Source: Coniferiporia sulphurascens
Lineage: Eukaryota; Basidiomycota; Agaricomycetes; Hymenochaetales; Hymenochaetaceae
Reading direction: 5' to 3'
DNA length: 64,000 nucleotides
Assembly: GCA_002794785.1 (NCBI GenBank)
Contig: NBBA01000023.1
Coordinates: 372,001 to 436,000, forward strand
Made by a program: the position numbers and the translations under genes. Under the pieces are notes generated by a model. The model had not been told where the DNA came from. It ran no database searches and saw only the letters and a program-made list of their open reading frames with translations. Below, piece by piece: positions 3-46,167 of the stretch; within the stretch, counting starts at the first letter, position 1, and every line of letters starts with the position of its first letter.

Positions 3-3000
3 TCGACTGGGGCAAGTGCGGCCCAGGCTAAACATACCGCAGCAGCAGCAGCAACAAACGTCGCATCGAGCTCTCGAATCGAACTAAGCGCCGTAATCGG
101 CCAAGGCGAAATTGGCGCCTTTATAACCGAAGTCAATGATAACAACTTCGACATGGGAGAATTCCCAATATACTCATATAACGATTTTCTTGACAAAATA
201 GGAAACTACGATAGCGCCATGGAAGACGTGGACGATAACAACCTAGACGTAAGCATTAACGCTATAATAACAGAAAAATTTGCTAACAATATTTATTCCT
301 CAATGGATATAATCGATACTGGTGCAACGATACATCTAACACCATATCTAAATCGATTACAAAATACATACAAAACCAACACAATCACAATAACGGCTGC
401 AAACAAAACAACGTTTATGGCAAACATAGTAGGGGATCTTAAGCTTTACATCCCCAACGGACACTCGGTAAGTGTCATAAAATTATCAAACATATACTAC
501 AATCCTAAAATGAATATGACATTAGTCTCTCAAGGACTTCTATGTCAAGATGGCTACAAATTTATTTATAAAGAAAACGAATGTACAATAAAGTATCCTA
601 ATGGATCTTTATGCGGAAAAATCATAAATAAAAATGGATTGTATAGTATATTTAACAATGATGTACAAGCGGCTACAAAAAATGTAACATTATTTGAACT
701 TCACAAAAAACTCGGGCATATAAGTTATGCTTACATAAAACGATTACTAAAAGAAGATCAAATTACAAATAACAAAATATCAAATTACGACGAAACTCAA
801 TGCACAATTTGCCTTGAAGCAAATATAAAAAGAATGCAAATTCCAAAATTACATATTTCAAAGTTAGCCGAAAAATTTGGCAATCACATACATATGGACA
901 TATGGGGTCCAGCATCCACACATGCTATTGGAGGATATAAATATCTTCTAACACTTGTAGATGATGCTACAAGATGGATAAAAATGATTTTATTAAAAAC
1001 AAAAGATGAGGGCTTAAATGCTTATACGACTTGGGCTACTATGCTCAATACCCAATTTAACATAAAAATAAAAATATTACAAAGCGATAATGACACAGTG
1101 TTTTTAAGTAAACAATTCACTGAATATTTAGAAAAACATGGAACGATATGAAAGCTGACTGTTCACGATACACCACAACAAAATGGAGTAGCAGAATGAT
1201 CACATCAAACAATTTTAAATAATACATGAGTAAATCTGCTACAAGTGAAAGTACCTCCAAGCTTATGGGGAGAAGCTGTAAAATACAGTACTTATGTTTA
1301 CAATAGAATGCCAAAAAGTGCTATTGATTTTAAAACACCATATTTTAAACGATATAACGAAAATTATAACATCGATGATCTAAAAGAATTCGGCCAATAT
1401 TGCATTATACGACAAGAAGACGTTAATAAATTACAACCAAAAGGAAAATATGCACAATGGCTAGGATTTGACGAAGAAAGTAAAGGTCATAGAACCTATC
1501 ATAATAGAAAAATCTCAGTAGAACGAAATTTACAATTTTTAGATTCTCCACCATCTAAAATTGAAGGGGAGAATATAACAGAAAAACAAAATGAACAAAT
1601 AAAAGAATTAACAAATGAAAGACCAATACGAACAATTAAACCAACAAAACGATCACTAGGTCTAAACTTTGATGAACAAAACACAGTCGCCTATCTTACG
1701 GAATTTAACCAATTCAATACGGAATTAATAGGCGATCCAAATTCATATCAACAAGCAATCAATAGAATTGACGCAAATCAGTGGATCTCAGCAATGAAAG
1801 AAGAAATAAAAACATTAATCGAAAGATCTATGTGGAAAATCATTGATCCACCAAAAGAAGTAAACATAATTGGAACAAGATTTGTTTACAAAACAAAAAG
1901 ATTAGCAAATGGAGAAATCGAATGTTACAAAGCAAGATTAGTAGTTCAAGGATTTGCCCAGAAAGAAGGCATAGACTACTACTCAAATGACACATTCGCT
2001 CCAGTAGCATGATTAGCTACAGTAAGAACTATATTAAGTTGGAGCACAACAAACAATTATGAAATTCACCAAATCGATATAAAATCAGCTTACCTATATG
2101 GTGAATTAGAAAAAGACGAAAACATATACATAAAACCACCACCAGGAAATCTAATCAAAATAAAACCTGGACAAGTTTTAAAATTAAATAAAGCCTTATA
2201 TGGATTAAAACAAGCAGGCAGACGATGGTATAAAAAATTATCTGAAATATTAATTGGAATAGGACTAACAAGAGCAGTCCAAGACAATGCAGTATTCCTA
2301 AGAAAAGAAAAAGGAAAAACAATTCTAATACTTTTCATACATGTTGACGACATAACAATATGTGGCTTAAATCTATTAATAATAAAAGCCTTTAAAGATG
2401 AAATAAGAAAACATGTAAAATTTACTGATGGAAACGATATACATTGGTTACTCGGCATTGAAATCGAAAGAAACCGAGATGAAAGAATTATAAAATTAAG
2501 ACAAAAACATTATATTGATAATATAATAGAAAAATATAAATTAAAAGACACTGCAACGGTACGAACACCAATGACACCTGGTCAAGTGTTAAAATCACTC
2601 GAAAATCCAACTAATGAAGAATTAAACTTCATGAATCAAATACCATATATGAACATGGTTGGAGCATTATGATATGCAGCAGATTGTACGAGACCTGATA
2701 TATCATTCGCAACAGGTCAATTTGCTAGGCATTTGAATAAACCTAGTATTGAACATTACAATGCAGTAAAACATTGTTTCAAATATCTAAAAGGAACGAA
2801 CAATTATTGGTTAATACTCGGAGGAAAAGAACCAATTGAGTTAATAGGATACACTGACGCTGATGGAATGACACAAGAAGGCCATAAAGCAATATCAGGA
2901 TATATATTCCAAATAGGAAACGCAACGACATCATGGTCAAGTAAAAAACAAGAATTAGTGTCATTATCAGTATGCGAAGCGGAATTACAAGCTTTAACTC

Positions 3001-9969: not shown

Positions 9970-12445
9970 ATGCCATGCCAATATAATCTATCTATTTGTC
10001 AAGCTGATGCGGAGCATGAGGCTAGACTAGCCACTGCCTTAGAAGCTCTTAATGCTGGCCATTGCAAAAGTATTAAGCAGGCTTCCTGTGAATTTAATGT
10101 TAAATATGATCCTCTCTATAATCAGTACAAAGGGATTCATAATAATAAATATGCTGCTAGGGAGGGACAACAACTCCTAAGCAATGCACGGGAGAAAGTT
10201 CTTGTTGACTGGTTAGTTTTCCTAGGATATTCGGGACATGCAGTCAGCCAAAAGACCATTTATCCCATGGTTAAGGACTTATGTGGCAGAAAGCCATCGA
10301 GGAAATGGCTCCGTGCATTTAGGGACCGGCATCCTGAACTCAAGCTTGCACAGTCGACAGGTCTTGACCCAAAGCGAGCCCAAGCTTTTAATCAGACAAC
10401 TGTAATGAACTACCTTGATATTCTTGAAAAGACTCTTTCAGACTACAATATACCCTGGGAGAACGTCTATAATATGGATGAGAAGGGCATTCAAATGGGT
10501 GGAGGTCGAAAAGGATGGCGGCAGAAGTTCTTTTTTAGCAAAAACCAGAGGGTACAAACCAAAATGCAGTCAGCAGACCTTCAGTTGGCAACTGTCATAG
10601 AATGTGTCTGCACAGACGGCACCACAGTCGATCCAGGATTCGTACTTGAAAGCCAAGCTGGCTATTGTCCAGAATGGTTTGAGGGTCTGGATGAATACAA
10701 TTATCTGTCAGTATGTTTCACCAAGATTGTTATATGGCTGGTAACCTAACTTTCATCTGCATAGTGTCTCCATCACGGAAAATGGCTGGACCAACAATTT
10801 TGTCTGCACAGAATGGTTCGAAAAAATATTCATACCATTCATCAGGGCCAATCATAATGTGCCCAGTAAGCCTAGTCTTCTGCTTCTGGACGGGCATGGT
10901 TCGCACTTGACAGACCGAATGTGCAAGCTTGCAATATCCAATGAAGTTCATTTAGTTTGCTTACCACTGCATACTACACACCGACTCCAACCTCTTGATG
11001 TCGGTGTTTTCACACATGTACAGTGGGGCTGGGAGGACCAAAGTGATGACATTGTAGACAAGACCAGACAGAGCATCCAGCCAAAAGAAGTGATTTGAGA
11101 ATACTTCAAGCTTCGCAATGGAGCTATTACTCCCAGCAGAGTTGTCTCCGCTTGGAAAAGGGCAGGACTCAACCCTATCAACAGGACTGTCTTCACCGAT
11201 GGAGATTTCTCCCCAAGCCAGGATACATCTACACTTGGCCACATACCAGATTCATTTCCAGTCAGGCTTTTCCCAGATGGAACTAGGAACCCCACAGAAT
11301 CCATGGATGCCACGGAATTGACACAGGATGCACCAGTATCTGAGTCCAAGTCTGACAAGCTCAAGTCCAAGTCTGAGCCCGAGCCTGAGTCCGAGTCTGA
11401 GTCCGAGTCCGAGTCCGAGTCAGAGGAAAGCGGCAACAGTGAGCTTGACAATGGTGACGGGCAAGCAAGCATGGAGTCTATTGATTTGGGGTCCAACTCC
11501 AAATTTGGCACAGTTGACATTCCCAAACCTGGCCCAGGGATGTCTGAGTCCATCACACAGTGCAGCATGGCCTCTCTCCCTCCCCCAATAGCTCTTTGCA
11601 CCACCACAGAAAATTCAGATTCTGGCTTTGCTCAACCTCCCTCTCAGGCGACAATTCTTTCATCTGGTGGCGCCACAGTGATGGCTTCACAAAAGCGAAA
11701 GTTCAGCTCAATGACTGACGCTGAAGATGAAATTCAACGGCTAGCCACTGCACTAAGACAAGAACAAGTTCGGGCAGATCGTGCCGAAGCACACTGCATC
11801 CTGGCTTTGTGTGAGACTGAGAAGCTCAAGTACAGACTCAACGCAAAGACCAACAAGTGTGAGCGAAGGTTTCATTCCACTGCAGTATGTCTAACTTCAA
11901 AAGAAGGACTACAGGAATGGACAGAGGAAAAGTGGAGAAGAATAGAGAAGGAGGAAAAGGAAAAGGCTGCAAAAGAAAAGCATGAAGCAGCAGCTAAGGA
12001 ACATGAAGGAGCTTGTATCGCTGCTGCACATTCTGGTGTGTTCTCGGGATCACTGTGCTCGAAAAACAAGGCTGAGTTGGAGAATATTGCGGCCGCATTC
12101 TCACTTCCAATGAAGGGCACAAAGGCAGAACTAACTAGCAAGCTTACAGCCCACATGGATGGCCATCCAGAACTGGCGAATAATCCCTGTTTCATGGGTC
12201 TTTTCAGTTCATGCAAACGAGTGGTCCCAGCAAGTCCATACTACATGGCAGCTAGTTCTGGCCCCACATCCGTTCATACCATGCAGAATGTGGTTGTGTT
12301 CCCGCACGTTCCACAACAGTTTCAATTTCAAGTTGGATTGCAAGCACCTGGGCCTGGTTTTTTGTCGGCACAACAGGGTGTTTTCTGGCCCTATTACCCT
12401 TCTCCACCCACTAGTCAAGGGTCTACCCACATGGCCTCCCAATAA
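9970..12445 (+). pseudogene. Pogo-like (Tc1/mariner superfamily) DDE transposase with SAP-like C-terminus, inactivated
   Basis: The ATG at 9970 gives a helix-turn-helix N-terminus (ALEALNAGHCKSIKQAS, then a Tc5/CENP-B type block ending FRDRHPELKL). The DDE_1 catalytic region follows: NMDEKG near 10,475, LLLDGHGSHL near 10,880 and HRLQPLDVGVF near 10,985 carry the acidic residues. Near 10,707-10,764 the frame changes; a 58-nt GTCAGT...ATAG intron would join the exons in frame, or this is a frameshift. A TGA at 11,096-11,098 interrupts EYFKLRNG in an otherwise open frame, and the usual codon there is arginine. The long C-terminus has an acidic SESE repeat (near 11,390), a coiled coil (near 11,900-11,990) and a SAP-like segment (KAELENIAAAFSLPMKGTKA near 12,090). 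The length fits fungal pogo-like transposases with extended tails. Confidence 0.85.
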
Positions 12446-12679
12446 ATGGTGTAGGATAACACAGACAGACGTCGCACTGTTGTGTTTTGTCAATTAACTT
12501 GAAGGTTTTGTATATTGTCCAGCCCTGCTGTGGTGCTAGACTCGTCTACTTGGTATGCATTTTCAGTTCTCATTTTGATTGCAGCATTCAACCACTGACA
12601 TTCACTGTTGTCAGTGAACATATCTACACTCTACAGGACCCCACTGAAGCATACTTAGTATATACAGCATTCATCAGAC

Positions 12680-13720
12680 ATGGATGTGGACGTTGATGTT
12701 GTGGGGACTCGGAGACAGCACAAGGCCCATTCACATCTCCTTCCTCCAACTCTTGTGTTCAAATTTCTCCTTCCTCATTTTCGGCCTTGTCTTCATTGGT
12801 GAGTGCAGCAGCTGTCCGTTCCCAGGTCCAGACTGTCAGGCGAGAGGCTGGAGGTACACATCGTCAAACGTACGGAACATACAGTGGCCAAGATCATCAT
12901 GCCCCGTGCTAACAGGCAAGGTGCTGGCCCAAATCATACAGGTTCCGGCTCGCAGAAGGGAGAAGCTAATGCAGCCTGAGAGGCAGAAATCACCATGCTA
13001 TCCCGAGTGAGCACTGCACCTGGCACGCTTTCTAGTGCGGGCAGCATTCTACCTCTGGTCCCACCTCTTCCCTCTTTCACAAACCGTTACTCACGCTCAT
13101 CCACTGGCGTCGCAGACCTTGCTGCTGTTACTGGTGCACAATTCAGAAAGTGTAAGTCCTTCGCTGTGCCGCTGCCAATGATGTGCCCTCCTTCCGTGTC
13201 TTTTGGCTTGAACACAGGGGCTACAAGGTGCACGTCGCAGCGCCCTGGGACAGGTGGAACTGTCGGCACTGTAGGATCTAACTCAGATGGGTCTACACAC
13301 CCCTTTCCACCGGGTTCTGCACATTGCCCAAACGCAGTGCCAGCGACTATGTGAATGTACGTCCCTTCACCTAATAGTGGTACCCCACACAACTTGAATT
13401 CAGTATCCCCAGCATCGTCTTGTTCGACATGCGCATCCAGTCCTCGTCCTTGTCATCTGATGCAAATGGCAATGGCTCTCCATATGCACCCTTTCTGCCA
13501 CACAATCCTGCATTCCAGTTCCCTTACGTTTTTTGCCCTAGGATCCATATGCTCAATGCTCGTAAATATTGACCCAGGAGGACAAAATATCCTTGCATTA
13601 TTATTTTATATTTTAATCATCCCACACTTCAAGCACATCTTGACCGGGCTTGGATGGTACACTATCAAGCTGGGGTATATTTCACCATCAAACGATATAC
13701 TCTCTTAATATTCTTAACAA
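12680..13720 (+). pseudogene. Coding-like, degenerate ORF next to the transposase
   Basis: From an ATG at 12,680 the frame reads a basic/hydrophobic segment to about 12,798. A second frame from about 12,826 continues with HIVKRTEHTVAKIIMPRAN. A TGA near 12,977 (Arg codon CGA by C-to-T?) is followed in the same frame by TMLSRVSTAPGTLSSAG to about 13,150, where a good GTAAGT donor occurs. The only intron that would join the first two blocks is 27 nt, too short, so a frameshift is more likely. The family was not recognised. Whether it belongs to the pogo-like element or to the invaded locus is unknown. Confidence 0.35.
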
Positions 13721-13729
13721 AGTGATATG

Positions 13730-15206
13730 TGTTAGGAATTGATGAATAAGCTTGCTTACAAGCTTAGACAATGACACCAGCAACTACCAATACAGGAAGG
13801 GACTCCCACAGAGACTATCCAGTGATCATTCAACATGGGGATGGAACTAACTAGAAAACCAGGACTTCTTGGGAACATCAGGCCAATCACGATGCTCAAG
13901 CGACCGCTAAAGACTCTTGACTTGTCAAGACTCTGCCACCAATGCCAGACCGCATACAATCAATCATGGGAAGCATTTAACACGGTAATAACCAAATGCT
14001 TTTACATGGCAGGGTACACGAACTGCCAGGTAACTACAGATCACGCTGTAGACCCTATAGGCGACGGCACGGAGGTCAGGGTAATGCACACGATACAAAT
14101 GTACATCTTCGATGTACAGGAGTTTTTGCACAACGTCCATGTCCAGACGATAGTGAACCCACACATACATGACAAGGAATGTGACCTATGAGTGGTCTCG
14201 GGATCCTTCTCGTACAGGACATTGCAGGATAACACATTCCTAGCTAACGCTCACCAATTACGTGCAAAGGTAATCACCCTCTTTGAGAATCTATCAGCAA
14301 AGGGATTGATGACTGCCGATCAGCAGATCGGCAATGTTAATCTTTACGTGATAACACTATGGTTATCAAATGGATCACCCCTGGCGCCACCTCCAGGATA
14401 CACATGACATATCACTAGGATAAACCACATTAATGAACTGCCAGACAACGTGATCGACGACAGGACACCAACTGAAAGGTACCCACCTATGGACCTTTAG
14501 CCAATATTGCATTACGTGATTAAGCCACACTCGGCAGGAATCGAAGCACTTACCGAAGCCAGCCACAAACCTTAAATGGACAATTGTCCAAGTCGACAGG
14601 ATAACATGAAGGAACCAGTACAGGAGGCCAACAAGACAAGTTAACGACTTACCAATCATCAAGCTGTTAGGCAGCATCTTAACAAGAAGCCACTGGCACA
14701 TAAGACTACAGGGTAGTGTGCAGAACAGTGGGGCAACGCACACAGCCTAAGCGTCATGGTGAAGTCATTATGATACCATATGACATCCCTATGAGCTCAG
14801 TGGAGCCTAGTGGAGCATAGTGGAGCACATGATGCACAGTGGAGCTCAGTGGAGCACCAATGGCCAATCGTAGATAGTTATTTCTCATATGATCACCTTA
14901 TGGTGTCATTTGCACTGGTATGCAGCTCCAAGTCAGTGGAGCTTATGATGGCACTGTGAGACATCATAGCTCCAACTGCAGAGCCTTGTGGAGCATCCGC
15001 TTTCAAGCGGAGCTTCTTCTTCCATGTATATAAGGAGGGCCTAGACCAGCCTAGACCCCAGTTTAATTCACCTTCTCAATTCTCTCAGACTTCTCCTGAG
15101 CGAAAGTACCAACATCTACCGACTTATTCTTGACTCAATCACATGCCTCAACTCTATCTTGACTACTTGTTCCATCGGCTAACCATGGTTACCCTTGGTC
15201 CTAACA
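13730..15206 (+). repeat. 1.48-kb LTR, copy 1 (forward)
   Basis: Starts TGTTAGGAATT and ends GGTCCTAACA, i.e. TG...CA with short terminal inverted repeats. A TATA box (TGTATATAAGG, near 15,027) lies about 180 bp before the 3' end, as in the U3-R-U5 layout of an LTR. It is nearly identical to the reverse-oriented copy at 23,004-24,477. Its flanks differ: ATATG (13,725-13,729) on the left and CACAT (15,207-15,211) on the right, so it lacks its own target duplication. The exchanged flanks are found around copy 2. No protein-coding internal region adjoins it. Confidence 0.85.
13835..14573 (+). pseudogene. ORF carried inside the 1.48-kb LTR, with C-to-T type stops
   Basis: One frame from an ATG at 13,835 to a TAA near 14,573 (about 245 codons) is interrupted only by TGA at 14,189 and 14,405 and TAG near 14,498. 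Between the stops the sequence looks like protein (SRLCHQCQTAYNQSWEAF, ENLSAKGLMTADQQIGNV). The same stops occur in copy 2, so they predate the divergence of the two copies. No known family was recognised. An ORF in the U3 of an LTR is unusual; it may be chance, a captured fragment or a real element gene. Confidence 0.4.
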
Positions 15207-16153
15207 CACATTGTCCAAGGTCCATTGTCCAACACCCACCCCGCATGATGCGGTGGCGGTCAGTACACTTGGTGTGAGGATTTGATCCACTCACATGCTG
15301 AGCACCCCTCCCTTCTCAGGGGGGCTGCACCATGGGTGGCAAGGGGGAAAAGCCCCCTCACCATGACACCCCACAGCAGGTGTTAACGTCATAGCCTCCC
15401 AGGGGAACCCCAGGTATGGTCGGGGTAGTGCCTGCAAACCACTCAGGCCCCCTCCCTTAGATGGATACCCCCCTCACAACACCAAAACCCAAAGGGAGAT
15501 GGTGGTGGTAAGAGATCAAGAAGGGATGCTTCTAACCATGACTCTCGAGTCGTGGTTGGGGATGGCAGGAATTTTTGCTCAAAAAGGAAACCACCAAGCT
15601 GCTGGTTCCGATCTCCTTTCCCAATATCAACCCAAACTACTGGTAAGAATGTCTGCCGTACTTTCCATCACTCCTCGCCATGTAATTGAGATGGGCTGCT
15701 GGTTGGCAAGACAAAAAAAGAAATATCTTGGGGCCTGATGACATGACAGCACCCATCAACACGTAAATAACATTACAAGACAGAAAGCGAAAGGAGGAAA
15801 AACGTAGAAGCCGTGGCTCAGCAGTACATAGAAAGAAATACCACGGGCCCCGAAAATCAGGGCGAAATCTTGAATTATTGACCCACCTAACCCTCTACCT
15901 AAAGGTATCGGGAATAGAACCCTTGGTATCAAGATTTTTGAACCTTAAACTTATGATGGATGGGAGGAGGTCAATTAGACCCTGAGACCTGTGTGTGCAG
16001 GAATATTAATCTTAATTTCAATGATTCTTCAATTAGACCCTGAGACCCTGTGGGGTGGTATCTGTGTGCAGGAATGATTCTTCCAGGTACGGTGACAGGT
16101 ATAAAGAGTAGGGCCAGTAGGCTGTTCAAGGAGAGAGTAGTACTTACCACAAC
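15207..16153. other. No gene supported; C-rich unidentified stretch
   Basis: Holds the CACAT flank of LTR copy 1, a run of short inverted pieces (CCCCGCATGATGCGG near 15,238) and C-rich DNA to about 15,480. A 79-codon frame (15,499-15,738) has no recognisable feature. A partial direct repeat around CAATTAGACCCTGAGACC occurs at 15,973 and 16,030, just upstream of the next gene. Confidence 0.5.
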
Positions 16154-16835
16154 ATGTCCTCTCATCTGCTTTCTCTCTCTGGGCTGGACAACATAACGGC
16201 CAACAAGATCATCCAGATTATTCAGGCAGCACATGCTGTAACAAGCGACATTAATCTGCACAAGACTTTGTACGACGTTGCCTTCGGAAGGCAAGGCCCT
16301 TGCAACATCCAGCACGAAAACCCTTTAGCTTTCCTCGAACGTATTGTCTCTTCACTCGTAAATGTCGCAGCAATGGGCGCGAACCCCCAGGCATCGCAGC
16401 CTACCAGACCGGACCCCAAGAAGATAAACCGAAACCCTTGTCTTCGCTGCTCGGAGAAACGTCAAGGCGTAAGTACTACTAATTAATGATTGAATTATGC
16501 TGTTTACAATGCTTCTTCGCAGTGTGTCATTGTCTCTGGAGAAAACGAGCCATGCTTGTGCGGACAATGCAGGAAACTTGGTCTGTTGGAATGTATTATG
16601 AAGGTGAGCGACAATCTCTAAATGCGGCGTGACGCATGGGGTTTCGGAGGTTTAAATTAGTAAGCAGCCAATCGCAGTTCATCCACCAGGACCGGACGTC
16701 CACCATCACGTTCCCCAGACTGCAGTCAACATAAACCAACATACCCAGCAGCCTCACGGTCAACCCTCCACTCCTGCTTACCTATACCAAATGCAGGATC
16801 AATATCAGATACATCCCAACTTCGATCAACACTAA
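16154..16835 (+). CDS. Small Zn2Cys6 zinc-cluster protein (187 aa, three exons)
   Basis: Exons 16154-16468, 16523-16603 and 16668-16835, with GTAAGT/CAG and GTGAGC/CAG introns; all joins keep frame. The N-terminal ~70 residues are helical with no known domain. The centre has CLRC, then six residues and a third Cys, then 11 residues, GQC with Cys at both ends and a last Cys in LLEC. This spacing (C-x2-C-x6-C-x11-C-x2-C-x7-C) is that of a fungal binuclear zinc cluster. The tail is rich in Gln, His and Pro (QHTQQPHGQPST). The first intron falls exactly before the third Cys, as in the paralogue at 21547-22244. The protein is too short to carry the usual fungal transcription-factor middle domain. 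Probably nuclear and DNA-binding by family; target unknown. It lies inside the segment between the two inverted LTRs. Confidence 0.7.
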
Positions 16836-17459
16836 GGGCAAGCCTCTCGTGGATACTATGCCAACCGTGCTGGCCCGAGCTTTACTTTGTGCATAAGCTT
16901 TTACTTGTCGACAAGATTCTATCATGCCTAATACATATATCCAAACAGGGAGCACGTACTTGCCGAAAATCATGCTAATAACTTCTTCGCTGGCGGTTTC
17001 TACCCCGGCGGCGACACGCAGTTTTAGTCGACTAGATCATGACGTCTGCTAGGGCTTCAAGCCCATCTCGTACTAGGCGCACCACCGAGACAACTCTATC
17101 TTCATCGCTCGAGTAGATCTTTATGTATTTAATGACTGCTTCCTTTCATTTTCTTAACTATTTATCTCAAGCTGTCATAATGGATCAGTTGAAATCAAAA
17201 TTATTTATGCACACATTTGTCAAGGAAAGGGGAGGGCCGCTCGATAAATTGGACAAGCGCGAAGATTTCTTTAGAGTTTGATAGTATTCATATGAATGGA
17301 GGAATGATTTCGAGACACAAACTAGGATCGAGGGAGTGAGCGAGAACCGGGATTTTAACCCTGGGAAGTCATTTCCTGGTTTGTAGGGATAAATCGTAAC
17401 AGCTGGCATAAGTTATTCAGATGGATTTCTGTTATCATGTGTCGTGGATAGCACCCAAA
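16836..17459. other. No gene supported
   Basis: AT-rich spacer downstream of the Zn2Cys6 gene. Nothing recognisable in either strand. Confidence 0.4.
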
Positions 17460-17921
17460 CTCCACGAGAACAGCCACTTACCACCTTCTTTAAAATACAT
17501 TGCAAACCACTCTTCTGGCGTAGTTGGCATAGATGACGTTCGCCTTCTCCGGAGCCTTTGGTGATGCACTACAGTAAAGGAGAATAAGTAATATGAAGCC
17601 AGCTTCGAAGGTAGTACTCACCCCCTTGTGTTTTTTGGAGCATTGAAAGCAGGGGTCCGGATTTGGACCCCGCTGCGGGAATGACTCAGCTGCTTGCAGT
17701 GGCTGATGTTAAGCCATCGACATATCTGGCAAGGAAAGCCAGGGGAGTTCCGCCTTCAAGCTGAATGCTGCGAAGACCCTGGTTTCCCGAGGACACATTT
17801 AGCAAGGTATTGTATAAAGAATCATTACTCAATATGGCTTGCGATAAGCGTGTAAGCTAGACAATGCCAGAGCGAGTCTGCCAGTGGCATCTAACTCAGG
17901 AGACAATGGGTGAGACGACAT
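17460..17921 (-). pseudogene. Zn2Cys6 small-protein pseudogene
   Basis: Very similar to the gene at 21547-22244, upstream sequence included (ATG at 17,921). Relative to that copy it has an indel soon after MSSHPLSPELDA that shifts frame, a TGA in place of a CGA codon near 17,685 and a deletion of about 27 nt just before the zinc-cluster cysteines that shifts frame again. The splice donor after the CAAGGGG block is GTGAGT. A recent duplicate of the neighbour, on the same strand about 4.3 kb away. Confidence 0.75.
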
Positions 17922-18339
17922 GAAACTGGGGTGCCGCAGACTATTCTGCACCCTCTTATATTCCATAATATATCTGCGTCATGAAAGGATGCACAGGCAC
18001 ATAACATGTGGGATGCCCTGCCCAGAGAAAGTCTAAGCCATTGTGCAGAAAGAAGTTCGAGGTGTTGACCGTGAGAAGCCCGGTCCCCACACTGGTAGTA
18101 CTGTGCTGTGAATAATACTGTCGTGTGATCCCTGTTACAAACTATCTGTCTTTTGCTTACACATATATACTAGACGTAGATTAAAATCAACTATTAAATT
18201 CCTGGTACCGTTTTCATTTGTGCAAATGGCGGGGGCCGGGGGCGGAGGTGCCCTCTGTTGCAAAGTTTGCAATGGGGGTCACGTGACAGTAGTCTTTCCG
18301 CTAGATTAAAACAGAGCTCCTGCCCTTCAAGGTCGTCTT

Positions 18340-18890
18340 TATCTTGCTCAACGAACTGACTAATCATGGCTCGGGAACTGCCAGCAACATGCACAGTACC
18401 TCTATCATCGTGTCGCATGACTCTAGCTTCCCCAGCAACGCTAACGTCCTCCACCCCAACTGCTATAGGGTACCCTTGAGTCGTTCATCAGGTCGTTATC
18501 GGGGCCAAGTCATAATACATGCTCGAGGCAGCAGAGAACTTCAAGTCCAAGTTTCCAGACCATCCGACCATTTCTCTGACTGCTCCTCCTCATCTTTCGG
18601 CATACTAGAATTCACCGGAAAGCTCATTACGTACCATTTGCCTAAACACCGCCAGTGCGACTCATTCTCCTCTGGCGTCGTTGGCTGGTAGAAGGAACAG
18701 CTCGCCAAACTCATAAAGGGACTTGGGCTTGGTGCAGTCGTGCCCGTCTTTGAAGTCGACATGATGCGTGACGACGAAGTGTACGACCCCATGCGCCATT
18801 TTAAGATTGTCGTTGTCCAGTTTCAGCAGGTGCATAGACCGGCGACAGTGGGAGAAGGGCACATTACAGCCAGTATTGTGTTTTTGTAAG
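18340..18890 (+). pseudogene. Repeat family X, copy 3 (best-preserved coding frame)
   Basis: One frame from 18,344 reads FGILEFTGKLITYHLPKH, then a TAG at 18,689 (CAG by C-to-T?), and continues in the same frame KEQLAKLIKGLGLGAVVPVF, EVDMMRDDEVYDPMRHFKI to a TAA near 18,890. Composition and continuity on both sides of the stop suggest a decayed gene. The family was not recognised. The first half aligns with 5440-5830. Confidence 0.5.
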
Positions 18891-19765
18891 GTATTATGTT
18901 TTCGTAGGTCTTTTTACAAAGATGGTCCATTTCTGTGCACTTGTCATTAAACAGTATGAATTCCTCCACCACCACGAGTGTTAGGTTAAGTCCAATGATC
19001 CTCAAGACTAGGGGACCCGTGGTGATAGTCCCGAGTGTTGTCAGGCTTCGCGATGTGGACGAAACGGAACTGGATAGATATTACTATTGCTTAGGCCCAC
19101 GACTAAGCCAGAAGACATGCTTCCGCATGGCTGTGGAGAATACGGCAGAGATTGCAGCACTCCACTGCCTATGGTTAGAGCACCAGGATATCATAGAGTT
19201 GATTTAGTTGTGTGTGAGTGTAGCACCAGGGGTCTAGGAAGCTAACTTGACATAGCACATGCACCCCAGAATGAATGCCAAGGACCAAAGGGCTTGAAGC
19301 TGTGCAGTGACATGGTCAAACATGCATATACCGTGCACCGTGATAGCGGAACAAGAGCAGGATAATACTGGCTAGAAACAGTAGATCCAGAGGGAGACAA
19401 GAAAGAGAAGGGTAAAACCAGATTCGAAGATAAAAACACCTGCAACGTACATGTACACGAGTATGGCGAGTCTGAATCAGAGCCTGAGTCCGAGCCTGCC
19501 ACACAGACCATCCGCTGTGTGATCAGATTTATGCCGAGTGTGGTAGGATGAGATGCAGTTCCTGATCCCCTAGATCAGTATCAAAGAACTGAAATGGGAT
19601 GTTGTTATGCTTCATGAACAAGAAAACGCATCGGCGTGAGCAGGTAGTATGGGCCCAACCTAAGGCGAAGGTGATATCCCAGAGGTTAGTCTAGATAAGA
19701 ACAAAACAGACAGAGAGTTCATACAGTTGCTAACAGACCAATCACCCATTAAACCCTTCCACGTC
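18891..19765. other. Unidentified; short acidic fragment resembling the transposase tail
   Basis: At 19,459-19,500 a block reading ESESEPESEPATQT resembles the SESE repeat of the pogo-like transposase (near 11,390) and may be a fragment of a second copy. Otherwise nothing supported. A plausible branch site and acceptor (CTAACAG) sits at 19,731-19,737 before the exon-like frame described next. Confidence 0.35.
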
Positions 19766-20296
19766 CTTCTTGTTAGATGTGGTCGATCTTCTTTCCTTTT
19801 TCATCTACCTCCGATCCTTTTTCCTTTTCTGTTCCTTCCTTTCACATTTCCCCTTTCGGCATGATCACCTGCTCCCTGATCCCCTTTAGTCAAATGACTC
19901 ATTATGACTCGTGATCATCCCCTTATGGTAATACTTTCCCGATGACCCCCTGAGCTTAAATAGTCGAGCCGAACATTATTGTTTCCTGTTCTTCTCTTCT
20001 ACTTACCGTCGTGTTGTCTAAGGTATTACCTGTATATCCCTGTCATTTTGAAGCAATCTACTTACCATTGTGTCATCTAAGCGTTATGCGTGATCTGAAC
20101 ATAGTCCCTCTGAGTCCCCCCCTCAGATTACTAGGTGTTCCCTTTGTGCTAGTCAGTGTTTTGTTGATCTCTTCAGGGGCCCTGTCGGGTTATTCCTGGC
20201 CGCTGCCTAACACTTCTTTCGATCTTCTGTCAATATTGTTGGGGCTGCTGTGGCAACTGAAGCAGAAGTGGACAAGCGTAAAAAGCGTCACTGATC
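19738..20296 (+). pseudogene. Exon-like frame split by a solo LTR
   Basis: Reading 19,738-19,770 and, across the LTR, 20,218-20,296 as one sequence (one copy of the duplicated CTTCT kept) gives a continuous open frame ending VATEAEVDKRKKRH and a TGA. A CTAACAG acceptor precedes it. It is short, so it is only a suggestion that the LTR landed in the last exon of a gene; the upstream exons were not identified. Confidence 0.3.
19771..20212 (+). repeat. Solo LTR (442 bp) with target duplication CTTCT
   Basis: Starts TGTTAGATGTGG and ends GCTGCCTAACA. It is flanked by identical CTTCT at 19,766-19,770 and 20,213-20,217. A TATA-like CTTAAATAG lies near 19,954. It is a different family from the 1.48-kb LTR, the 558-bp LTR and the copia LTR. 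No internal sequence adjoins it. Confidence 0.8.
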
Positions 20297-20989
20297 CTTG
20301 TTTCCCTTATGGAACTTCAACTTTGAACTAAGGGATGTTGCGCAAGATCTTAAGTCGACATAAGACGCAGGTGAGAGCAGGCTGGTACACGTATGTGGAG
20401 GTTATTGTAATACCATATAGAGACCATACATGGTGTGCCTGAACTATCCTAGACCAAGTGCGAAGCGGTCATCGACCAGAGTCCGGAGTCTCAACCTATT
20501 GTGCATCGGGTAATTGCACTGAGCCCATATCGAAGAAAGGTCTGGCCACTGGTATTGGTGAAAGCACAAGGTCGTGACAAATCCATCAAGCTGGCCCGGG
20601 TACTTAGCTAAGCATTGATGACATAGCATCATATTTTAACAGATTACCTTTAGGTAGAAATGTCTAATGGATCAGAAATTTATCTCTTTTTCTTGTGTTG
20701 AGAGTACACTTGGTTTATAACAGCAGAATGGCAAAACCCAAACATGTAGTCAGAAGTAGTACAGGCAACTTGAAACCAATTTAACACAAAAGTAAATGAG
20801 GGTCAGATTTCTCGACCAAACTACATGCCATTGTTGACGAAGTTTTCGCCAGGCATATATCCCCTGTATACACGGAAAATAGTAAGCATAAGGATTCTCA
20901 ACATCGGAGATCACATCTTGGACTTGGAGTAAAAGACTTGGAGCCGCTTACATATTAAAGCTTGGACCTGGAATCACGGTGTGATTAAG
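20297..20989. other. No gene supported
   Basis: Spacer between two solo LTRs. The last ~60 bases before 20,990, read on the minus strand, are probably the original 3' end of the Zn2Cys6 gene at 21547-22244, separated from it by the 558-bp LTR. Confidence 0.4.
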
Positions 20990-20994
20990 TCGTC

Positions 20995-21552
20995 TGTTAC
21001 AATTTTCCTTTACTCTCCTTTACTGCACTGACTCATTTCCTCTTCATCATCATCAGTCAGCACAACTCCCCCATTTCCCTTCCTTACTCATCCTTATTTG
21101 TCTTACACCATAAGATGCCATGACGTCGCCATATCGCACCATCATGGCGTGCTTTGCTTACTGATCACCATACTTGTATTACCAAGGCGTTCCTTGAGTT
21201 TCCATGACCATCCATAGTCTGGTAAACACACCTAACCAAGTCGCTACAGTAGCAAACACATAGAGTAGCATATAAGCATGTAACTTCAGTAGCACAAGTC
21301 CTAAGCTTGTGCTCTTTGTTCATACAAGCCCATTATCTGCTACCACCAGTTTACTGTGCACCAGTGTGCCACTAGTCGCTTCGTCATAACCCGACTCGCT
21401 ACAGAAGCCTACCACATCCACATCACCAATCAGGAAGCCCCATCGCCGATCATCTTCAACTTACGACATCTAGGAAGCCCCATTGCCATACCATCAGTAT
21501 CTTTGATCAGGAAGCCCCGACGTTGATCACTGCATAACCATTGAGCTTAACA
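20995..21552 (+). repeat. Solo LTR (558 bp) with target duplication TCGTC
   Basis: Starts TGTTACAATTTTCC and ends GAGCTTAACA. It is flanked by identical TCGTC at 20,990-20,994 and 21,553-21,557. A TATA-like CATATAAGCATG lies near 21,269. The downstream part has three copies of AGGAAGCCCC (21,432; 21,471; 21,509) about 39 bp apart. It is inserted in the last exon of the Zn2Cys6 gene on the opposite strand. Confidence 0.85.
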
Positions 21553-22244
21553 TCGTCCATCATGAACTGCATCATGAACTGGGAATTGATCATGGCCTGG
21601 GTGCACTGGATATTGCCAGTGGTTCTGGTAAGTGTGCACTTGATGGTGGTCAATGGATGTGGTTTGTTGATTATGATACAATGCAGGCTGTTGGAGAACT
21701 GGTAGCAGGGGCTGTGTGACCTTGTAATCACGGTGTCACGTGAGCATACACCCAAACGAGAAAACAGCAGCAAAACAGGTACTTACTGCCTTCTTTGAAA
21801 TACATTGCAAACCACTTTTCTGACATAGTTGGCATAGATGACGTTCACCTTCTCTGGAGATAATGACGCACTACAGTAAAGGAGCATAAGTAACACGAAG
21901 CCAGCTTCGAGGGTAGTACTTACCCCCTTGTGATTTTTGGAGCAATGAAAGCAGGGGTCCGGATTTGTTTTCTTCGAACCTTGTCTAACAGACCCCGCTG
22001 CAGGAGCGACTCGGCTGCTTGCAGTGGCTGAGGTTAAGGCATCGACACATCCGGCAAGGAAAGCCAGAGGAGTTCCGCCTTCAAGGTGAATACTGTGAAG
22101 ACCCTGGTTTCCCAAGGACACATTTAGCAAGGTGTTGTATAAAGGAGTGTTGCTCGATACGACTTGTGACAAGCGTATAAGCTGGACAATGCCAGAGGCG
22201 AGTCTGGCATCTAACTCAGGAGGGGACGATGGGCAAGACGACAT
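21547..22244 (-). CDS. Small Zn2Cys6 zinc-cluster protein, C-terminus cut by a solo LTR
   Basis: Exons 22244-21924, 21870-21787 and about 21720-21547 (or from 21711 if a CAG acceptor is used), about 190 residues. The cluster reads CFHC, six residues, Cys, 11 residues, CQLC, six residues, Cys: a canonical binuclear zinc cluster. The first intron lies just before the third Cys, as in the gene at 16154. The tail is rich in Gln and His. The stop codon TAA (21549-21547) is inside the solo LTR: the reading frame runs through the TCGTC target duplication and ends on the LTR's own terminus. Beyond the LTR the same frame would continue for about a dozen codons (LNHTVIPGPSFNM) to a TAA near 20,937. The truncation is short and outside the zinc cluster, so the protein could still work. 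Confidence 0.7.
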
Positions 22245-22617
22245 GAAACTGGGGAGCCACTAACTATTCTGCCATGACCCTTTTATATTCTATATCTGCA
22301 GCCTGAAAGGCTGTAACTTGCAGGATTCTTTGAATTCCATCTATGAAGCATGTGGACATTTCGACTATAGCAAGAACACCAGAATTAAACCTCATGTGAA
22401 AAAGTGGGTAGGGACTTTCTTCCTTTGGAGCTGACAAACAGCTTGCCAAGCTCTTGGTTCAATATTAACAAGCTCTCAATATCCCTCACTTCGCCAGGGA
22501 TATTTTCCAGGGGTTGACCGGTCCCCGGATAAGCGGAGTGACATGTCATGCTAGAACCAGAACATGCTTAGTAAAATTATTAGTAACATTCTTATGGAAG
22601 CAGGTAGTGGGCATTTT

Positions 22618-22835
22618 TATTATACTATTGTATGACCACTGTTACAAAGAAATTGTATTTTACTTCTGCAGCACCCACAACTCAAAATATTTTTACCGGC
22701 TTTGCTGTACTGAATACTCTTGTACTTCACTATCTACCATCATTTTCCAGTTATGTTTTGATAAGCTAGAAATCTCAGAATAAATGTCCCCCCTTCTACA
22801 ATGGTTTTGTCACAGTCTGTCACGGAGATTTTTTA
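22618..22835. mobile_element. Possible short non-autonomous element (MITE-like)
   Basis: The left end (ACTATTGTATGACCACTG plus TTACAAAG) is shared with the region before the pogo-like transposase (9426). The right end, read in reverse, gives GACAGACTGTGACAAAAC, a fair inverted match to GACCACTGTTACAAAG. The intervening ~190 bp is AT-rich without coding frame. Size and sharing suggest a deletion derivative of the pogo-like family; the ends are only approximate. Confidence 0.35.
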
Positions 22836-23003
22836 TGCTCCAATTGAAGAGCACCCGGCACAGTATTCGGCAAAACAGCACACACCGGCACATGCATTTC
22901 GTAATAAGCTGCAAAAAACACTGAGATGGTGCTGGCTCTTACTAGGCATGTATTAGATATAAATCCATAAGAATTAAAGACTGCTATTAATGGAGGCACA
23001 TAT

Positions 23004-24477
23004 TGTTAGGACCAAGGGTAACCATGGTTAGCCGATGGAACAAGTAGTCAAGATAGAGTTGAGGCGTGTGATTGAGTCAAGAATAAGTCGGTAGATGTTG
23101 GTACTTCGCTCAGGAGAAGTCTGAGAGAATTGAGAAGGTGAATTAAACTGGGGTCTAGGCTGGTCTAGGCCCTCCTTATATACATGGAGAAGAAGCTCCG
23201 CTTGAAAGCGGATGCTCCACAAGGCTCTGCAGTTGGAGCTATGATGTCTCACAGTGCCATCATAAGCTCCACTGACTTGGAGCTGCATACCAGTGCAAAT
23301 GACACCATAAGGTGATCATATGAGAAATAACTATCTACGATTGGCCATTGGTGCTCCACTGAGCTCCACTGTGCATCATGTGCTCCACTATGCTCCACTA
23401 GGCTCCACTGAGCTCATAGGGATGTCATATGGTATCATAATGACTTCACCATGACGCTTAGGCTGTGTGCGTTGCCCCACTGTTCTGCACACTACCCTGT
23501 AGTCTTATGTGCCAGTGGCTTCTTGTTAAGATGCTGCCTAACAGCTTGATGATTGGTAAGTCGTTAACTTGTCTTGTTGGCCTCCTGTACTGGTTCCTTC
23601 ATGTTATCCTGTCGACTTGGACAATTGTCCATTTAAGGTTTGTGGCTGGCTTCGGTAAGCGCTTCGATTCCTGCCGAGTGTGGCTTAATCACGTAATGCA
23701 ATATTAGCTAAAGGTCCATAGGTGGGTACCTTTCAGTTGGTGTCCTGTCGTCGATCACGTTGTCTGGTGGTTCATTAATGTGGTTTATCCTAGTGATACG
23801 TCATGTGTATCCTGGAGGTGGCGCCAGGGGTGATCCATTTGATAACCATAGTGTTATCACGTAAAGATTAACATTGCCGATCTGCTGATCGGCAGTCATC
23901 AATCCCTTTGCTGATAGATTCTCAAAGAGGGTGATTACCTTTGCACGTAATTGGTGAGCGTTAGCTAGGAATGTGTTATCCTGCAATGTCCTGTACGAGA
24001 AGGATCCCGAGACCACTCATAGGTCACATTCCTTGTCATGTATGTGTGGGTTCACTATCGTCTGGACATGGACGTTGTGCAAAAACTCCTGTACATCGAA
24101 GATGTACATTTGTATCGTGTGCATTACCCTGACCTCCGTGCCGTCGCCTATAGGGTCTACAGCGTGATCTGTAGTTACCTGGCAGTTCGTGTACCCTGCC
24201 ATGTAAAAGCATTTGGTTATTACCGTGTTAAATGCTTCCCATGATTGATTGTATGCGGTCTGGCATTGGTGGCAGAGTCTTGACAAGTCAAGAGTCTTTA
24301 GCGGTCGCTTGAGCATCGTGATTGGCCTGATGTTCCCAAGAAGTCCTGGTTTTCTAGTTAGTTCCATCCCCATGTTGAATGATCACTGGATAGTCTCCAT
24401 GGGAGTCCCTTCCTGTATTGGTAGTGCTGGTGTCATTGTCTAAGCTTGTAAGCAAGCTTATTCATCAATTCCTAACA
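23004..24477 (-). repeat. 1.48-kb LTR, copy 2 (reverse)
   Basis: Reverse complement of the element at 13730-15206, nearly identical throughout (ends TGTTAGGAATT and CCTAACA on the minus strand). Flanks: CATAT at 22,999-23,003 and ATGTG at 24,478-24,482. Read in the LTR's own direction these are CACAT before it and ATATG after it, exactly the two flanks missing their partners at copy 1. It carries the same internal frame with the same stops (minus strand, about 24,373-23,635). Confidence 0.85.
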
Positions 24478-24482
24478 ATGTG

Positions 24483-25684
24483 CGACAAAGTTCACCAACT
24501 TACGGATGCCTGGCCTCCATAGCTCAGCATTGCTTTCTCCCTGCTGGACCAGCGACAATTAACTGGCTGTGGCATTTCCGCTGCCCTCTGCCCTGCCCCT
24601 GACAAACCTGCCCACCACAATGATGCTTCGCGACATCCAGTTCCCCCAGACTTCCCCAATTGGGTGCCTCGGCACCCACACTCAACCCGGCCCCTCACGA
24701 GGCCCCCACCCACACTGCCCTCCAATTGTAATAGTGCAGACTGGCATTAGCACGAAACGCAACCCTGGCCTGGACAATTGTAGTTGTAGGATGAGCTTTC
24801 GAATGCCCCCTTCCCTCCCCACCATGAACATTCCTTTCCCAAACCAACACCAATGACCATCCTCCAATGTGAGGCTCTGAAAAGTCTAGTAGCTAGTAGT
24901 GCGGGTTATAGGGTCTTAGTAGTAGTTGGACCTGCCTTCCTCCCCTAATCCAAAGAATGAACAACCAACCTCTCCAGGGCTCTGACAGTCTAGTAGCTAG
25001 TAGGTGATGGGCTAGTAGGGTAGTATAGGGATTTGGGCACGGCCTACAGCCGCACACTTTTCTTTTCAGAATGATGCGTGTAATAAAAATCCAATTCTCT
25101 CTCTCTCTCTGAGTCATGGTTAGATGGTGGAAAGTGTCGGAGTTTCAATATTACAGCTTAGTTTGTACATAAATCAAATACACCATGTGCATAGCCCCTG
25201 TCAATCTTTAATTTCTTTTTTGGATGATTACTTGTGCATTGCATGTAGTCCACATTATGTAGCTTTCTTAGTCTAAAAAACATGCATTAGCATAGAAATC
25301 TCATACAGTGATGTCTAGCTCATTTTATCTGATTTTTATGGTATTTTTTGGTCTGTTGTAGGCAGAATTCCTTATTATAGAGTTGATTACATAACACATA
25401 AAATTTTACATTGGCCATCTCCATGGAGGGGCTACTTTTGAGCCTGTAAACACTGTCTCAATTATAAGTGGAATGGCAAGGCCGAATAGTCCTTAATAAG
25501 GAAGGACCCTATGATTACATACAATGCCGAAAAAATCCTGCCATTGTGCGCTGCCATGTAATTGAGTAGGACTAGCGGCTTTTACGGCTTCCCTTTTTGG
25601 CATTCTATTTTTGCTTTCTCTCTTGTAATACCATTTACGTGTCATGCTCTAGGGCAGAAATCTGCAATCTCATTAGGGTCTAGT
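24483..25684. other. No gene supported; local direct repeat and CT-run
   Basis: A direct repeat with core AGTCTAGTAGCTAGTAG occurs at 24,880-24,910 and 24,988-25,010. A (CT)n run lies at 25,094-25,112. The remainder is AT-rich and unidentified. Confidence 0.5.
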
Positions 25685-34793: not shown

Positions 34794-36522
34794 TCATCCG
34801 CTCCGAGCAACCCATCCTATCAGCCCGCCAACAAAAACCGTTGCCATCCAAACCCGTGAACTCCGCCACCTATAGTCTCCCCCTGGCTCTTCGATAATTC
34901 CGGCCAACGTCGCGCCTTCCCCTCCTTGAGGTGCCTTGTTCTTCGCAATCCTAGTATCACTGTACAGCTCCTCTTGATCTTCTAACGAGCTTTCACCGGA
35001 ACCAAATTCGAGTTCGTGAGGCGGTACGATGCCGACCTGTGCGACACCGCCGAGGAAATCTGTAACGAGTGTCTCGGTTAAGCTGCGCGGAAAGAGTTCT
35101 GAGTGGACGCCCGCGTGTGATTTGATTGTACGGTGATCGTATGTAGAAAACTAGTAGACTCGTCAATAAAAGAGCCGGACGGGGTGTGGAGATAACGTAT
35201 AGAGTTGGTAGACAATATCAAAGTAGAACGCACAAGATCCTGCATCGATGCATGGCTCGTCTTGTTGATTCCCTCCATAAACTGTAATACATGGTGTGTA
35301 AAACTATCAATTACTGCCACGCCGATATCGTTATCGTTTTCGTGCTGTAACCCACATTTACGTTGATTAGCACGATATATTGGCTCTGGATCAGGAAATT
35401 GGACTTACGGAATATGAGTTTTCTCCTAGCTCCGAAGAACCAGTGGCAAGGGTGTTGGGTGAGTAGATTTTCGAGTACATAGTATTCGCCTGGCAGGTGT
35501 CAACCATGAAGAGGAGCTCGTTGTACCTTTGGTGCAAGTTAATTAGAAAATAAACTTTTAGAAAGACGGGGAACATCTCGCACCTTTTCTTTTGCCACAT
35601 TTGCTCGAAGGCGTCGGCGACATCGAACGCACTAATCTCTTCGTTGTCTTGGAACTTGAGGAACTCATTCCCACCATGCCCCGTCATGTACACAAAAACG
35701 TTTGAGCGCGCATCGGTGAGAAGGCGTTTACTGCGCGGGACAGACGCATCCATGCGACCTACGTCGGTTAACCACAAAGTAATTAATGAGCAAAACTCAA
35801 CGCAAAACCTAGCCGAAACAGAGGTATCTGGACAGCGATACAATGCACGATAGCACAACGCGACAGAGGACTTCGGTGGTGGATGCGTAACAGAAATCGA
35901 TAATTGGTATCAATACGCACCGGTAAGCAGCCGAATGAAGTTCTCCACCGTCACCTCGTACCCTCTGTAATCAACTTCGATGTTTTCGCCATAAAGGTCG
36001 ATCTTCCGACCGGAATCGGCGTAAACGGCTCCAGGGAAGTGATTACGTGCATTACACGCCGTGTCATCGGCCAGCATCAGGATAATATTCGAGTCTGGGA
36101 TACCCAATCGCTTCACAGTACGGTACCTGAAACAGAAAAAGAAAGCATGAGGGCAAAGTAAGGCAACAGAGAGATGGTGTGCACGCTGCCCAGAAGCCAC
36201 TCACATTCCGAGTGCATTTGACATGTGCTGACCATACGAAGCAGGGAGGGTCAGACCCGTGTCTCCAATATAATCTCAAAACTCCAGGCGGACGACATAC
36301 TCTGTAATTGAACCAATATCGCGAAGCACTGACGAGAACAGCCCAGTTATTCGTGTGATTTGAAGTTGGCAACGCCGACGACCCCCGGCCACGTTCATCC
36401 CCAGCTGTTCCTTTGAAGAACGCCTCGGCGGCTCGCTCAGCTGGAGAGCCTGCGGCTTGAGCTACGGCCCATACCGACAGAAAATATAAAAGAAATAGCT
36501 GAGTGATAGGTGGTAGCAGCAT
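34794..36522 (-). CDS. GPI8: GPI-anchor transamidase catalytic subunit (403 aa, seven exons)
   Basis: Caspase-like cysteine protease (family C13) that cleaves the C-terminal signal of proproteins in the ER and attaches the GPI anchor; partners in yeast are Gaa1, Gpi16, Gpi17 and Gab1. Exons 36522-36301, 36227-36205, 36126-35921, 35758-35584, 35526-35409, 35344-35234 and 35150-34794 join in frame to 1,212 nt. Features: signal peptide ([20 protein letters not shown]), [37 protein letters not shown], catalytic His in [10 protein letters not shown], catalytic Cys in [33 protein letters not shown] and a C-terminal membrane helix ([19 protein letters not shown]). The length equals the family's usual ~400 residues. 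Exon 2 is only 23 nt. No defect seen. Confidence 0.95.
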
Positions 36523-37187
36523 GGGGTCTATTACTAACCTCCCGGACTTGGCACCGTTGAGGCTGTCCCCGTGATTTACACGTGATCTAGGCCGATATCC
36601 CCTCGTTCGAGGTTCAGCACACTTTTGCCCACATCCCGATTCCCGAATCACCGCCGACACAATTGACCGGCGAAAAAATCGGCGCACTAGTCGAAACAAG
36701 TACACGAATTCTGCACGGTATTATAACTGAGAAGAAGGTTTAACTCCTGATATTCGGGTCCGCACACTTACAGTACTGTATCAATGTTGTTTTCGTACAT
36801 GGCGTCTGCGCCTGTGCAACGCGCCGGTCGAGCCTCGCATCATCCCGTTGCGACGCTAGAATGGGTTTCATTTCAGTTTCACCGCGAGCATGCGGTCCAA
36901 CTGTCGCCAAATATCATCGAAATGCTTCTTGTTCGCTTTGATCGGCTTTGCTCGTCCGGAATTACGTCTGCTAAAATTACTCCTCGAGTCGCCGGGGTTT
37001 TGGTTGTACCGTCCAGAAATATGTCTTATGATTTTCCTCGTCAAGCATTGACCTGGTATAATTAAAGCACATAATGTATGTGACCAAAATAAACAAACAT
37101 ATCGTTAAACTCGGATTATTCCGAAGATAAAGTAATTAGAGGACCTCAGCCGTGTTTCCCCGAAGACCCAAATACAACATCAACGCC
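36523..37187. other. Intergenic between GPI8 start and the DM9-like gene end
   Basis: Should hold the GPI8 promoter (36,523 to about 36,780) and the 3' region of the next gene. A 93-codon plus-strand frame at 36,784-37,065 has no homologue that I recognise and was not annotated. Confidence 0.5.
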
Positions 37188-46130: not shown

Positions 46131-46167
46131 CACGACATCCAGAAACTGATGTACTCGTTCCATCAAA

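What the first reader, a model, noticed from the sequence alone, without database searches (positions are those of the whole stretch)
13725..24482. Inversion between two LTRs, recorded by exchanged target duplications
The 1.48-kb LTR at 13730-15206 is flanked by ATATG (left) and CACAT (right). Its inverted copy at 23004-24477, read in LTR direction, is flanked by CACAT before and ATATG after. Each 5-mer finds its exact partner at the other LTR, not at its own. That is the result expected if two oppositely oriented solo LTRs, each with its own target duplication, recombined and inverted the 7.8 kb between them (15207-23003). Two exact 5-mer matches by chance are very unlikely. The segment holds the Zn2Cys6 family and two solo LTRs.
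Basis: partly seen in the sequence, partly recalled or inferred. Interest (0 to 1): 0.85.

Follow-up and report, generated by a model that had tools for sequence, protein, structure and literature searches.

The report
Inversion between two inverted solo LTRs
Two old retrotransposon scars lying in opposite directions recombined and flipped the 7.8 kb of fungal DNA between them, and the same genome shows the same event at other places, where such facing scars mostly stay nearly identical to each other.

Summary
The inversion reading is supported inside the same genome (39.35 Mb, 31 contigs; it fits Coniferiporia sulphurascens FP133613). Unoccupied paralogous sites exist for both insertions: contig C1 joins the 13729 side to the reversed 22998 side at 96% over 700 bp, and three places join the 24482 side to the 15207 side. 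The 'own' (left LTR) and 'whole unit' joins are spanned nowhere.

It is not a single case. Of 68 LTR copies read (about 83 exist), 40 keep exact 5-bp duplications; four pairs, plus one segmental duplicate, have exchanged ones. Of 2278 copy pairs, seven exceed 99%, all inverted neighbours closer than 25 kb; the next is 96.5%. A duplicated locus shows homogenisation after duplication. Best reading: nearby inverted solo LTRs recombine repeatedly, by conversion and crossing-over, and crossovers invert the spacer. The kind is known (Galileo inversions, yeast flip/flop). Misassembly is the main remaining doubt.

The parts
13725..13729 (+). target 5-mer X (ATATG), outer left
   Evidence: partner at 22999-23003 (reverse complement)
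13730..15206 (+). left LTR, 1477 bp, TGTTAGGA...TCCTAACA
   Evidence: one of about 83 copies in the genome
15207..15211 (+). target 5-mer Y as CACAT, inner left
   Evidence: partner at 24478-24482 (reverse complement)
15207..23003 (.). inverted spacer, 7.8 kb
   Evidence: unoccupied sites and restored collinearity
20995..21552 (-). 558-bp element of a second, very abundant LTR-like family inside the spacer
   Evidence: 40 of 1005 candidates scored; most of the 69 rows are this element; TGTTA...TAACA ends, TCGTC on both sides
22623..22998 (-). spacer end that on contig C1 follows directly on the 13729 side
22999..23003 (+). target 5-mer X as CATAT, inner right
23004..24477 (-). right LTR, 1474 bp, inverted, 99.3-99.4% identical to the left one
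24478..24482 (+). target 5-mer Y (ATGTG), outer right
24483..25110 (-). outer right flank, part of a dispersed repeat whose uninterrupted copies give the unoccupied Y site
12062..13729 (+). outer left flank with a 96% paralog on C1 that gives the unoccupied X site

Best explanation
Two members of an old LTR family inserted at X (ATATG) and Y (ATGTG), 7.8 kb apart and in opposite orientation (the two sites are shown; that the insertions were independent is inferred). A crossover between the two LTRs, by homologous recombination within the chromosome or between sister chromatids, inverted 15207-23003 and exchanged one target duplication of each (the ancestral adjacencies are shown; the crossover is inferred). 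Non-crossover events of the same kind copy one LTR onto the other, so that most nearby inverted LTRs stay over 99% identical while unrelated copies drift to about 94% (the pattern is shown; the mechanism is inferred). Because the homogenised pairs are all young on the CpG-decay clock, the process is probably recurrent, and the spacer may have flipped more than once (inferred).
For: Exchanged 5-mers, exact. Unoccupied X site, C1:1065990-1066690, 96% over 1-700 (1 of 4 matches, two others being the window's own halves). Unoccupied Y site at C14:387374 (89%), C1:4063611 (88%) and C6:347474 (79%) (3 of 52 matches span, 40 of 112 candidates scored; first seen in L061). Restored order gives one 2045-bp alignment, present order breaks. 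Composite and left-own joins spanned by 0 of 16 and 0 of 17 matches. Among fetched loci, 25 spanning rows, all for ancestral joins (one for this pair, 8 for C14, 16 for C7:750140), none for own or composite joins; the C7:1568590 and C1:1028748 pairs had no spanning row at all. Four independent exchanged pairs, all inverted neighbours. Seven of 2278 pairs over 99%, all inverted neighbours under 25 kb, and a further partly read one on C2 is 100% over 802 bp. In the C14/C26 segmental duplicates, LTRs differ at 57-61 columns between duplicates but at 3 and 5 within them. The C1:1028748/1040065 pair keeps both own duplications yet is 99.66% identical.
Against: No reads, second strain or second assembly was available, so an assembler flip is not excluded. 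Close inverted pairs are more numerous than random insertion gives (8 under 25 kb against a mean of 1.56; 0 of 5000 simulations reached 8; one of the 8 is a segmental duplicate), which independent insertion does not explain unless insertions cluster; 3 direct pairs against 1.53 is not unusual. Two close inverted pairs are not above 99%: L011/L019 at 22 kb (95.6%) and the C8 pair 175 bp apart (96.5% over 773 bp). Chimeric LTR halves, the classical proof of crossover, cannot be seen because the pair is so alike, and near-identity is what the hybrid-insertion model predicts.
Confidence: 0.82

Rival explanations
1. Assembly artefact: the true order is ancestral and the assembler flipped the spacer between two nearly identical inverted LTRs.
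For: A flipped assembly would give the same exchanged duplications and the same support from unoccupied sites. Four exchanged to one intact among independent homogenised pairs is also what random orientation would allow.
Against: Two other exchanged pairs have spacers of only 0.7 and 1.6 kb. The assembly runs through dozens of 1.5-kb copies with no N in 296,994 fetched letters and has an N50 of 1.94 Mb, as expected of long reads that span these repeats; the sequencing method itself was not verified. Homogenisation of inverted neighbours needs a biological cause anyway.
Confidence: 0.1
2. One-step paired integration or hybrid-element insertion: ends of one element on sister chromatids, or of two cDNAs, join at X and Y at once, making the second copy and the inversion together.
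For: It gives the same junctions. Passages of PMC2775673 say the outcome differs from ectopic recombination only in that the two copies are identical rather than chimeric, and here they are nearly identical. It would explain the excess of close inverted pairs.
Against: Hybrid-element insertion is described for DNA transposons such as P elements (references); TG...CA ends and 5-bp duplications point to an LTR. C14/C26 shows homogenisation long after duplication, so identity needs no common birth. C1:1028748/1040065 is equally identical with both own duplications intact.
Confidence: 0.07
3. One 10.7-kb composite transposon with LTRs as long terminal inverted repeats, inserted once at a site now reading ATATG/ATGTG.
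For: The outer flanks agree at 4 of 5 bases.
Against: No place joins the two outer flanks (0 of 16 matches span). C1 joins 13729 to reversed 22998 instead. At the other exchanged pairs no composite join is spanned in the fetched loci.
Confidence: 0.01

Closest known systems
Galileo-generated inversion 2z3 of Drosophila buzzatii (PMC2775673, passages read)
   Same: Two copies in opposite orientation, exchanged target duplications, a single target copy at the sites of non-inverted chromosomes; the TIRs of the two breakpoint copies are over 99% identical between copies.
   Different: Galileo is a P-superfamily DNA transposon with 7-bp duplications, and its breakpoint copies are shown to be chimeric. 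Here it is a solo LTR with 5-bp duplications in a fungus, unoccupied sites come from paralogs, and four independent small loci lie in one genome.
Saccharomyces chromosome XIV flip/flop region (PMC9731477, abstract and sections 10 and 15 read)
   Same: Inverted repeats flanking 24 kb are continually homogenised, and crossovers flip the spacer.
   Different: There the repeat is about 4 kb with two gene pairs at one locus, and both orientations are seen in many strains. Here the repeats are 1.48-kb LTRs at several loci, and only one genome was available.
Non-allelic gene conversion among human LTRs (PMC4921805, passages read)
   Same: LTRs converting each other, more often when linked on one chromosome.
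   Different: There tracts are short (minimum 3-86 bp; maximum tracts average 99 bp) with many donors. Here whole LTR pairs are homogenised, in inverted neighbours.

Membership tests
inversion by ectopic recombination between transposable elements | two homologous copies in opposite orientation at the two breakpoints | tested here: met
inversion by ectopic recombination between transposable elements | target duplications exchanged between the copies | tested here: met
inversion by ectopic recombination between transposable elements | unoccupied ancestral sites show the predicted adjacencies | tested here: met
   controls 67, 68; paralogous, not allelic sites
inversion by ectopic recombination between transposable elements | copies at the breakpoints are chimeric | tested here: inconclusive
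   the pair differs at 10 of 1476 aligned columns, too alike to show halves
recurrent flip/flop inversion with homogenised repeats | repeats of one locus more alike than to their counterparts in a sister locus | tested here: met
   C14/C26 duplicates; for the window pair only against other family members
recurrent flip/flop inversion with homogenised repeats | both orientations occur among strains | not testable with these tools
   the window's genome has no relatives in this collection
solo LTR of an LTR retrotransposon | TG...CA ends and a fixed short target duplication | tested here: met
   40 of 68 exact 5-bp
solo LTR of an LTR retrotransposon | a full-length relative with reverse transcriptase between two such LTRs | tested here: inconclusive
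   none among the 68 copies: the only direct pair under 15 kb is 89.7% alike, one member with an exact own duplication and the other with 3 of 5. Among the 15 unread copies, C14:500305 lies 6.6 kb from a copy in the same direction, which has its own exact duplication

The most novel reading that the evidence does not exclude
Close inverted pairs of these dead LTRs are standing flip-flop switches: conversion keeps the arms identical indefinitely, crossovers keep re-inverting the spacers, and orientation is near equilibrium and polymorphic among nuclei and isolates at several loci at once. A dead LTR family thus becomes a lasting source of reversible inversions.
Probability: 0.35. Interest if true: 0.72.

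Novelty: new member of a known kind. Interest (0 to 1): 0.52.

Why it matters
One genome supplies the inverted loci, unoccupied ancestral sites, an uninverted comparison locus and a CpG-decay clock. How often inverted repeats of a dead element convert and flip, and over what distance, can therefore be approached without crosses. If orientation is polymorphic, such loci would suppress recombination locally and change gene order without any active transposon.

Tried and rejected
Composite 10.7-kb unit: rejected. Ordinary insertion at the left LTR with decayed own duplication: rejected (0 of 5 matches; left own join spanned nowhere; the right own join was tested only in fetched loci). Window contig as a haplotig of another contig: not supported; window 36000-44000 has no second copy (3 matches, the two others 191 and 48 bp). 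Zinc-cluster genes in the spacer: no Pfam support in six frames. Reading frame across the C7:1568590 pair as a test: 311 codons for one ancestral join and 152 for the other, against 84-254 for the own and composite joins; weak, not used. No unoccupied site was found for one join of that pair; its other join was not searched genome-wide. The C18 pair (100% identical) has outer flanks identical for at least 590 bp, so it is a larger inverted repeat; it counts among the seven pairs but not among the exchanged ones. The C2 head-to-head pair (100% over 802 bp) shows neither own nor exchanged duplications (read by eye). First shuffle control (right flanks of all 68 copies): observed 7, mean 1.47, max 6 of 2000. 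It is inflated because the 40 intact duplications stay in the pool and because C14/C26 cross-combinations are counted; one search repeats it on the 26 copies without exact duplication. Apparent exchange L014/L035 is a coincidence of two intact TCCAC duplications. Rfam: nothing.
Full report
OBSERVATION. The coordinates and 5-mers are right. The left LTR (13730-15206) reads ATATG[LTR]CACAT. The right LTR (23004-24477, minus strand) reads CACAT[LTR]ATATG in its own direction. Own flanks match at 0 of 5 positions, exchanged flanks at 5 of 5 twice. The LTRs begin TGTTAGGA and end TCCTAACA.

GENOME. The window is C23:372001-436000 of a genome of 39,347,566 bases in 31 contigs. An open frame of the window with fumarate-reductase domains is 97% identical to a Coniferiporia weirii protein. 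PMC10410303 (passages read) lists Coniferiporia sulphurascens FP133613 with 39.4 Mb, 31 scaffolds and an N50 printed as 19,39760; 1,939,760 is the length of contig C8 here. I take this to be the genome. Coniferiporia is a basidiomycete.

FAMILY. Patterns for the two ends, up to 3 mismatches, found 83 5' ends and 83 3' ends. Of 68, 40 have exact 5-bp duplications, 7 have 3-4 of 5, and 21 have 2 or fewer. Of the 21, ten are in five exchanged pairs, two are the C18 pair, four have interrupted or altered 3' ends (L008, L011, L039, L040), one has a 4-bp duplication (L031), and four are complete without duplication or exchanged partner among the 68 (L016, L021, L052, L061); these may be deletion scars between direct LTRs (inference).

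EXCHANGED PAIRS. C23 (window, 7.8 kb apart), C14:82708/108692 (24.5 kb), C7:750140/752330 (0.7 kb, 9 of 10), C7:1568590/1571625 (1.6 kb), and C26:109187/129152 (18.5 kb), a segmental duplicate of the C14 locus with the same flanks (on one inner side the C14 copy has a 558-bp insertion next to the LTR, beyond which the two agree at 91.7% over 96 bp). All are inverted neighbours. Leaving out C26, these are 4 pairs among 26 copies; 0 of 5000 shuffles reached 4.

ANCESTRAL ADJACENCY. If the spacer was inverted, sequence left of 13730 once continued into reversed 22998, and reversed 24482 once continued into 15207. The first join matches C1:1065990-1066690 at 96% over 1-700 without interruption. 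The second is spanned at C14:387374-387973 (89%), C1:4063611-4064160 (88%) and C6:347474-348088 (79%), 3 of 52 matches. On C6:2024820-2026042 both halves lie in order but about 560 bp apart. Controls: the two outer flanks joined, 0 of 16 matches span; outer left joined to inner left, 0 of 17 span. Matches end within a few bases of the joint or stay 12 and more bases away from it. With the spacer flipped back, window and C1 align in one 2045-bp block at 96.1%, followed by a further collinear block; in the present order the alignment breaks and changes strand. On C1 the outer right sequence (25465 on) follows directly on 22623, so this locus tests the left junction and the orientation of the spacer end, not the whole spacer. 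Within the fetched loci 25 rows span a joint: one for this pair, 8 for C14, 16 for C7:750140, all in the ancestral combination; many are short repeats, and two (L007, L022) lie in loci of pair members.

HOMOGENISATION. Median identity of 2278 copy pairs is 93.9% and the 99th percentile 96.0%. Exactly seven pairs lie at 99.3-100%, all inverted neighbours under 25 kb; the next pair is 96.5%. Inverted pairs under 25 kb: 7 of 8 homogenised. Inverted pairs at 30-46 kb: 0 of 4. Direct pairs under 25 kb: 0 of 3 (Fisher 0.024 against direct, 0.010 against far inverted; 0.048 for 5 of 6 against direct without C26 and C18). Two more close inverted pairs were outside the 68 because one member is interrupted: C2 (209 bp apart) is 100% over 802 bp; C8 (175 bp apart) is 96.5% over 773 bp, so not fully homogenised. 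The numbers are small, and direct pairs can also be lost by deletion. Most variation is CpG decay: unrelated copies differ at a mean of 67.3 CpG columns (minimum 40) and 27.3 other columns; the seven pairs differ at 0-9 CpG columns.

WHY CONVERSION, NOT COMMON BIRTH. C14 and C26 LTRs differ from each other at 55-58 CpG columns but only 1-2 other columns, so they share descent and have since decayed apart. Within each locus the two LTRs differ at only 3 and 5 positions. So homogenisation happened after the duplication. The intact-duplication pair on C1 (99.66%) shows the same without net inversion. That all seven pairs sit at the young end of the clock fits a recurrent process (inference).

MECHANISM. 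Two inverted LTRs pair. Repair without crossover copies one onto the other; repair with crossover flips the spacer (both inferred). Four exchanged to one intact among the independent pairs with readable duplications is compatible with repeated flipping, and also with single flips.

AGAINST. An assembly flip would leave the same junction signature, and I had no reads. The excess of close inverted pairs (8 against 1.56 expected) is unexplained by independent insertion and could favour a one-step origin of some pairs. L011/L019 (22 kb) and the C8 pair are below 99%.

KNOWN. Exchanged duplications with ectopic recombination are established for Galileo (PMC2775673, passages), and recurrent flipping with homogenised inverted repeats for yeast (PMC9731477, abstract and two sections). 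The listings showed, by title and start of abstract, no paper that plainly describes such a multi-locus solo-LTR case in a fungus. They are capped listings of an open-licence library, so this is weak evidence of absence. I file it as a new member of a known kind, with an unusually clean in-genome proof.

Noticed in passing
window 20995-21552; also nested in LTR copies at L008, L043, L047, L058, L059, L061: A second, very abundant 558-bp LTR-like family (TGTTAAGCTCAA... end, 5-bp duplication TCGTC here) that often sits inside copies of the 1.48-kb LTR.
   Followed up: partly
G000 C14:82708-110167 and C26:109187-130637: A segmental duplication carrying an inverted LTR pair with exchanged duplications in both copies; the C14 copy has an extra 558-bp insertion beside one LTR.
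   Followed up: partly
G000 C18:245572-254609: Inverted pair 100% identical whose identity runs at least 590 bp beyond the LTRs on the outer side and stops at the LTR 3' ends.
   Followed up: partly
L021, L016, L052, L061: Complete LTRs without target duplication and without exchanged partner: candidate scars of deletions between direct LTRs.
   Followed up: no
G000 C2:524996-530532 and C8:1864869-1868980: Two head-to-head LTR pairs only 209 and 175 bp apart, the second LTR interrupted at about position 802 in both; arms 100% and 96.5% identical; the short spacers are unrelated.
   Followed up: partly
window 1230-2012: Copia-type polymerase fragments (RVT_2, SH3) in a stretch of 31-36% GC.
   Followed up: no
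window 45716-48780 and 51811-54516: Diverged copies (74-79%) of a several-kilobase duplicated block.
   Followed up: no
window 17469-17991 and 21774-22313: Two copies (81%) of a short repeat inside the spacer; frames at 16121-16486 and 21783-22259 share a Cys-containing motif but have no Pfam match.
   Followed up: partly
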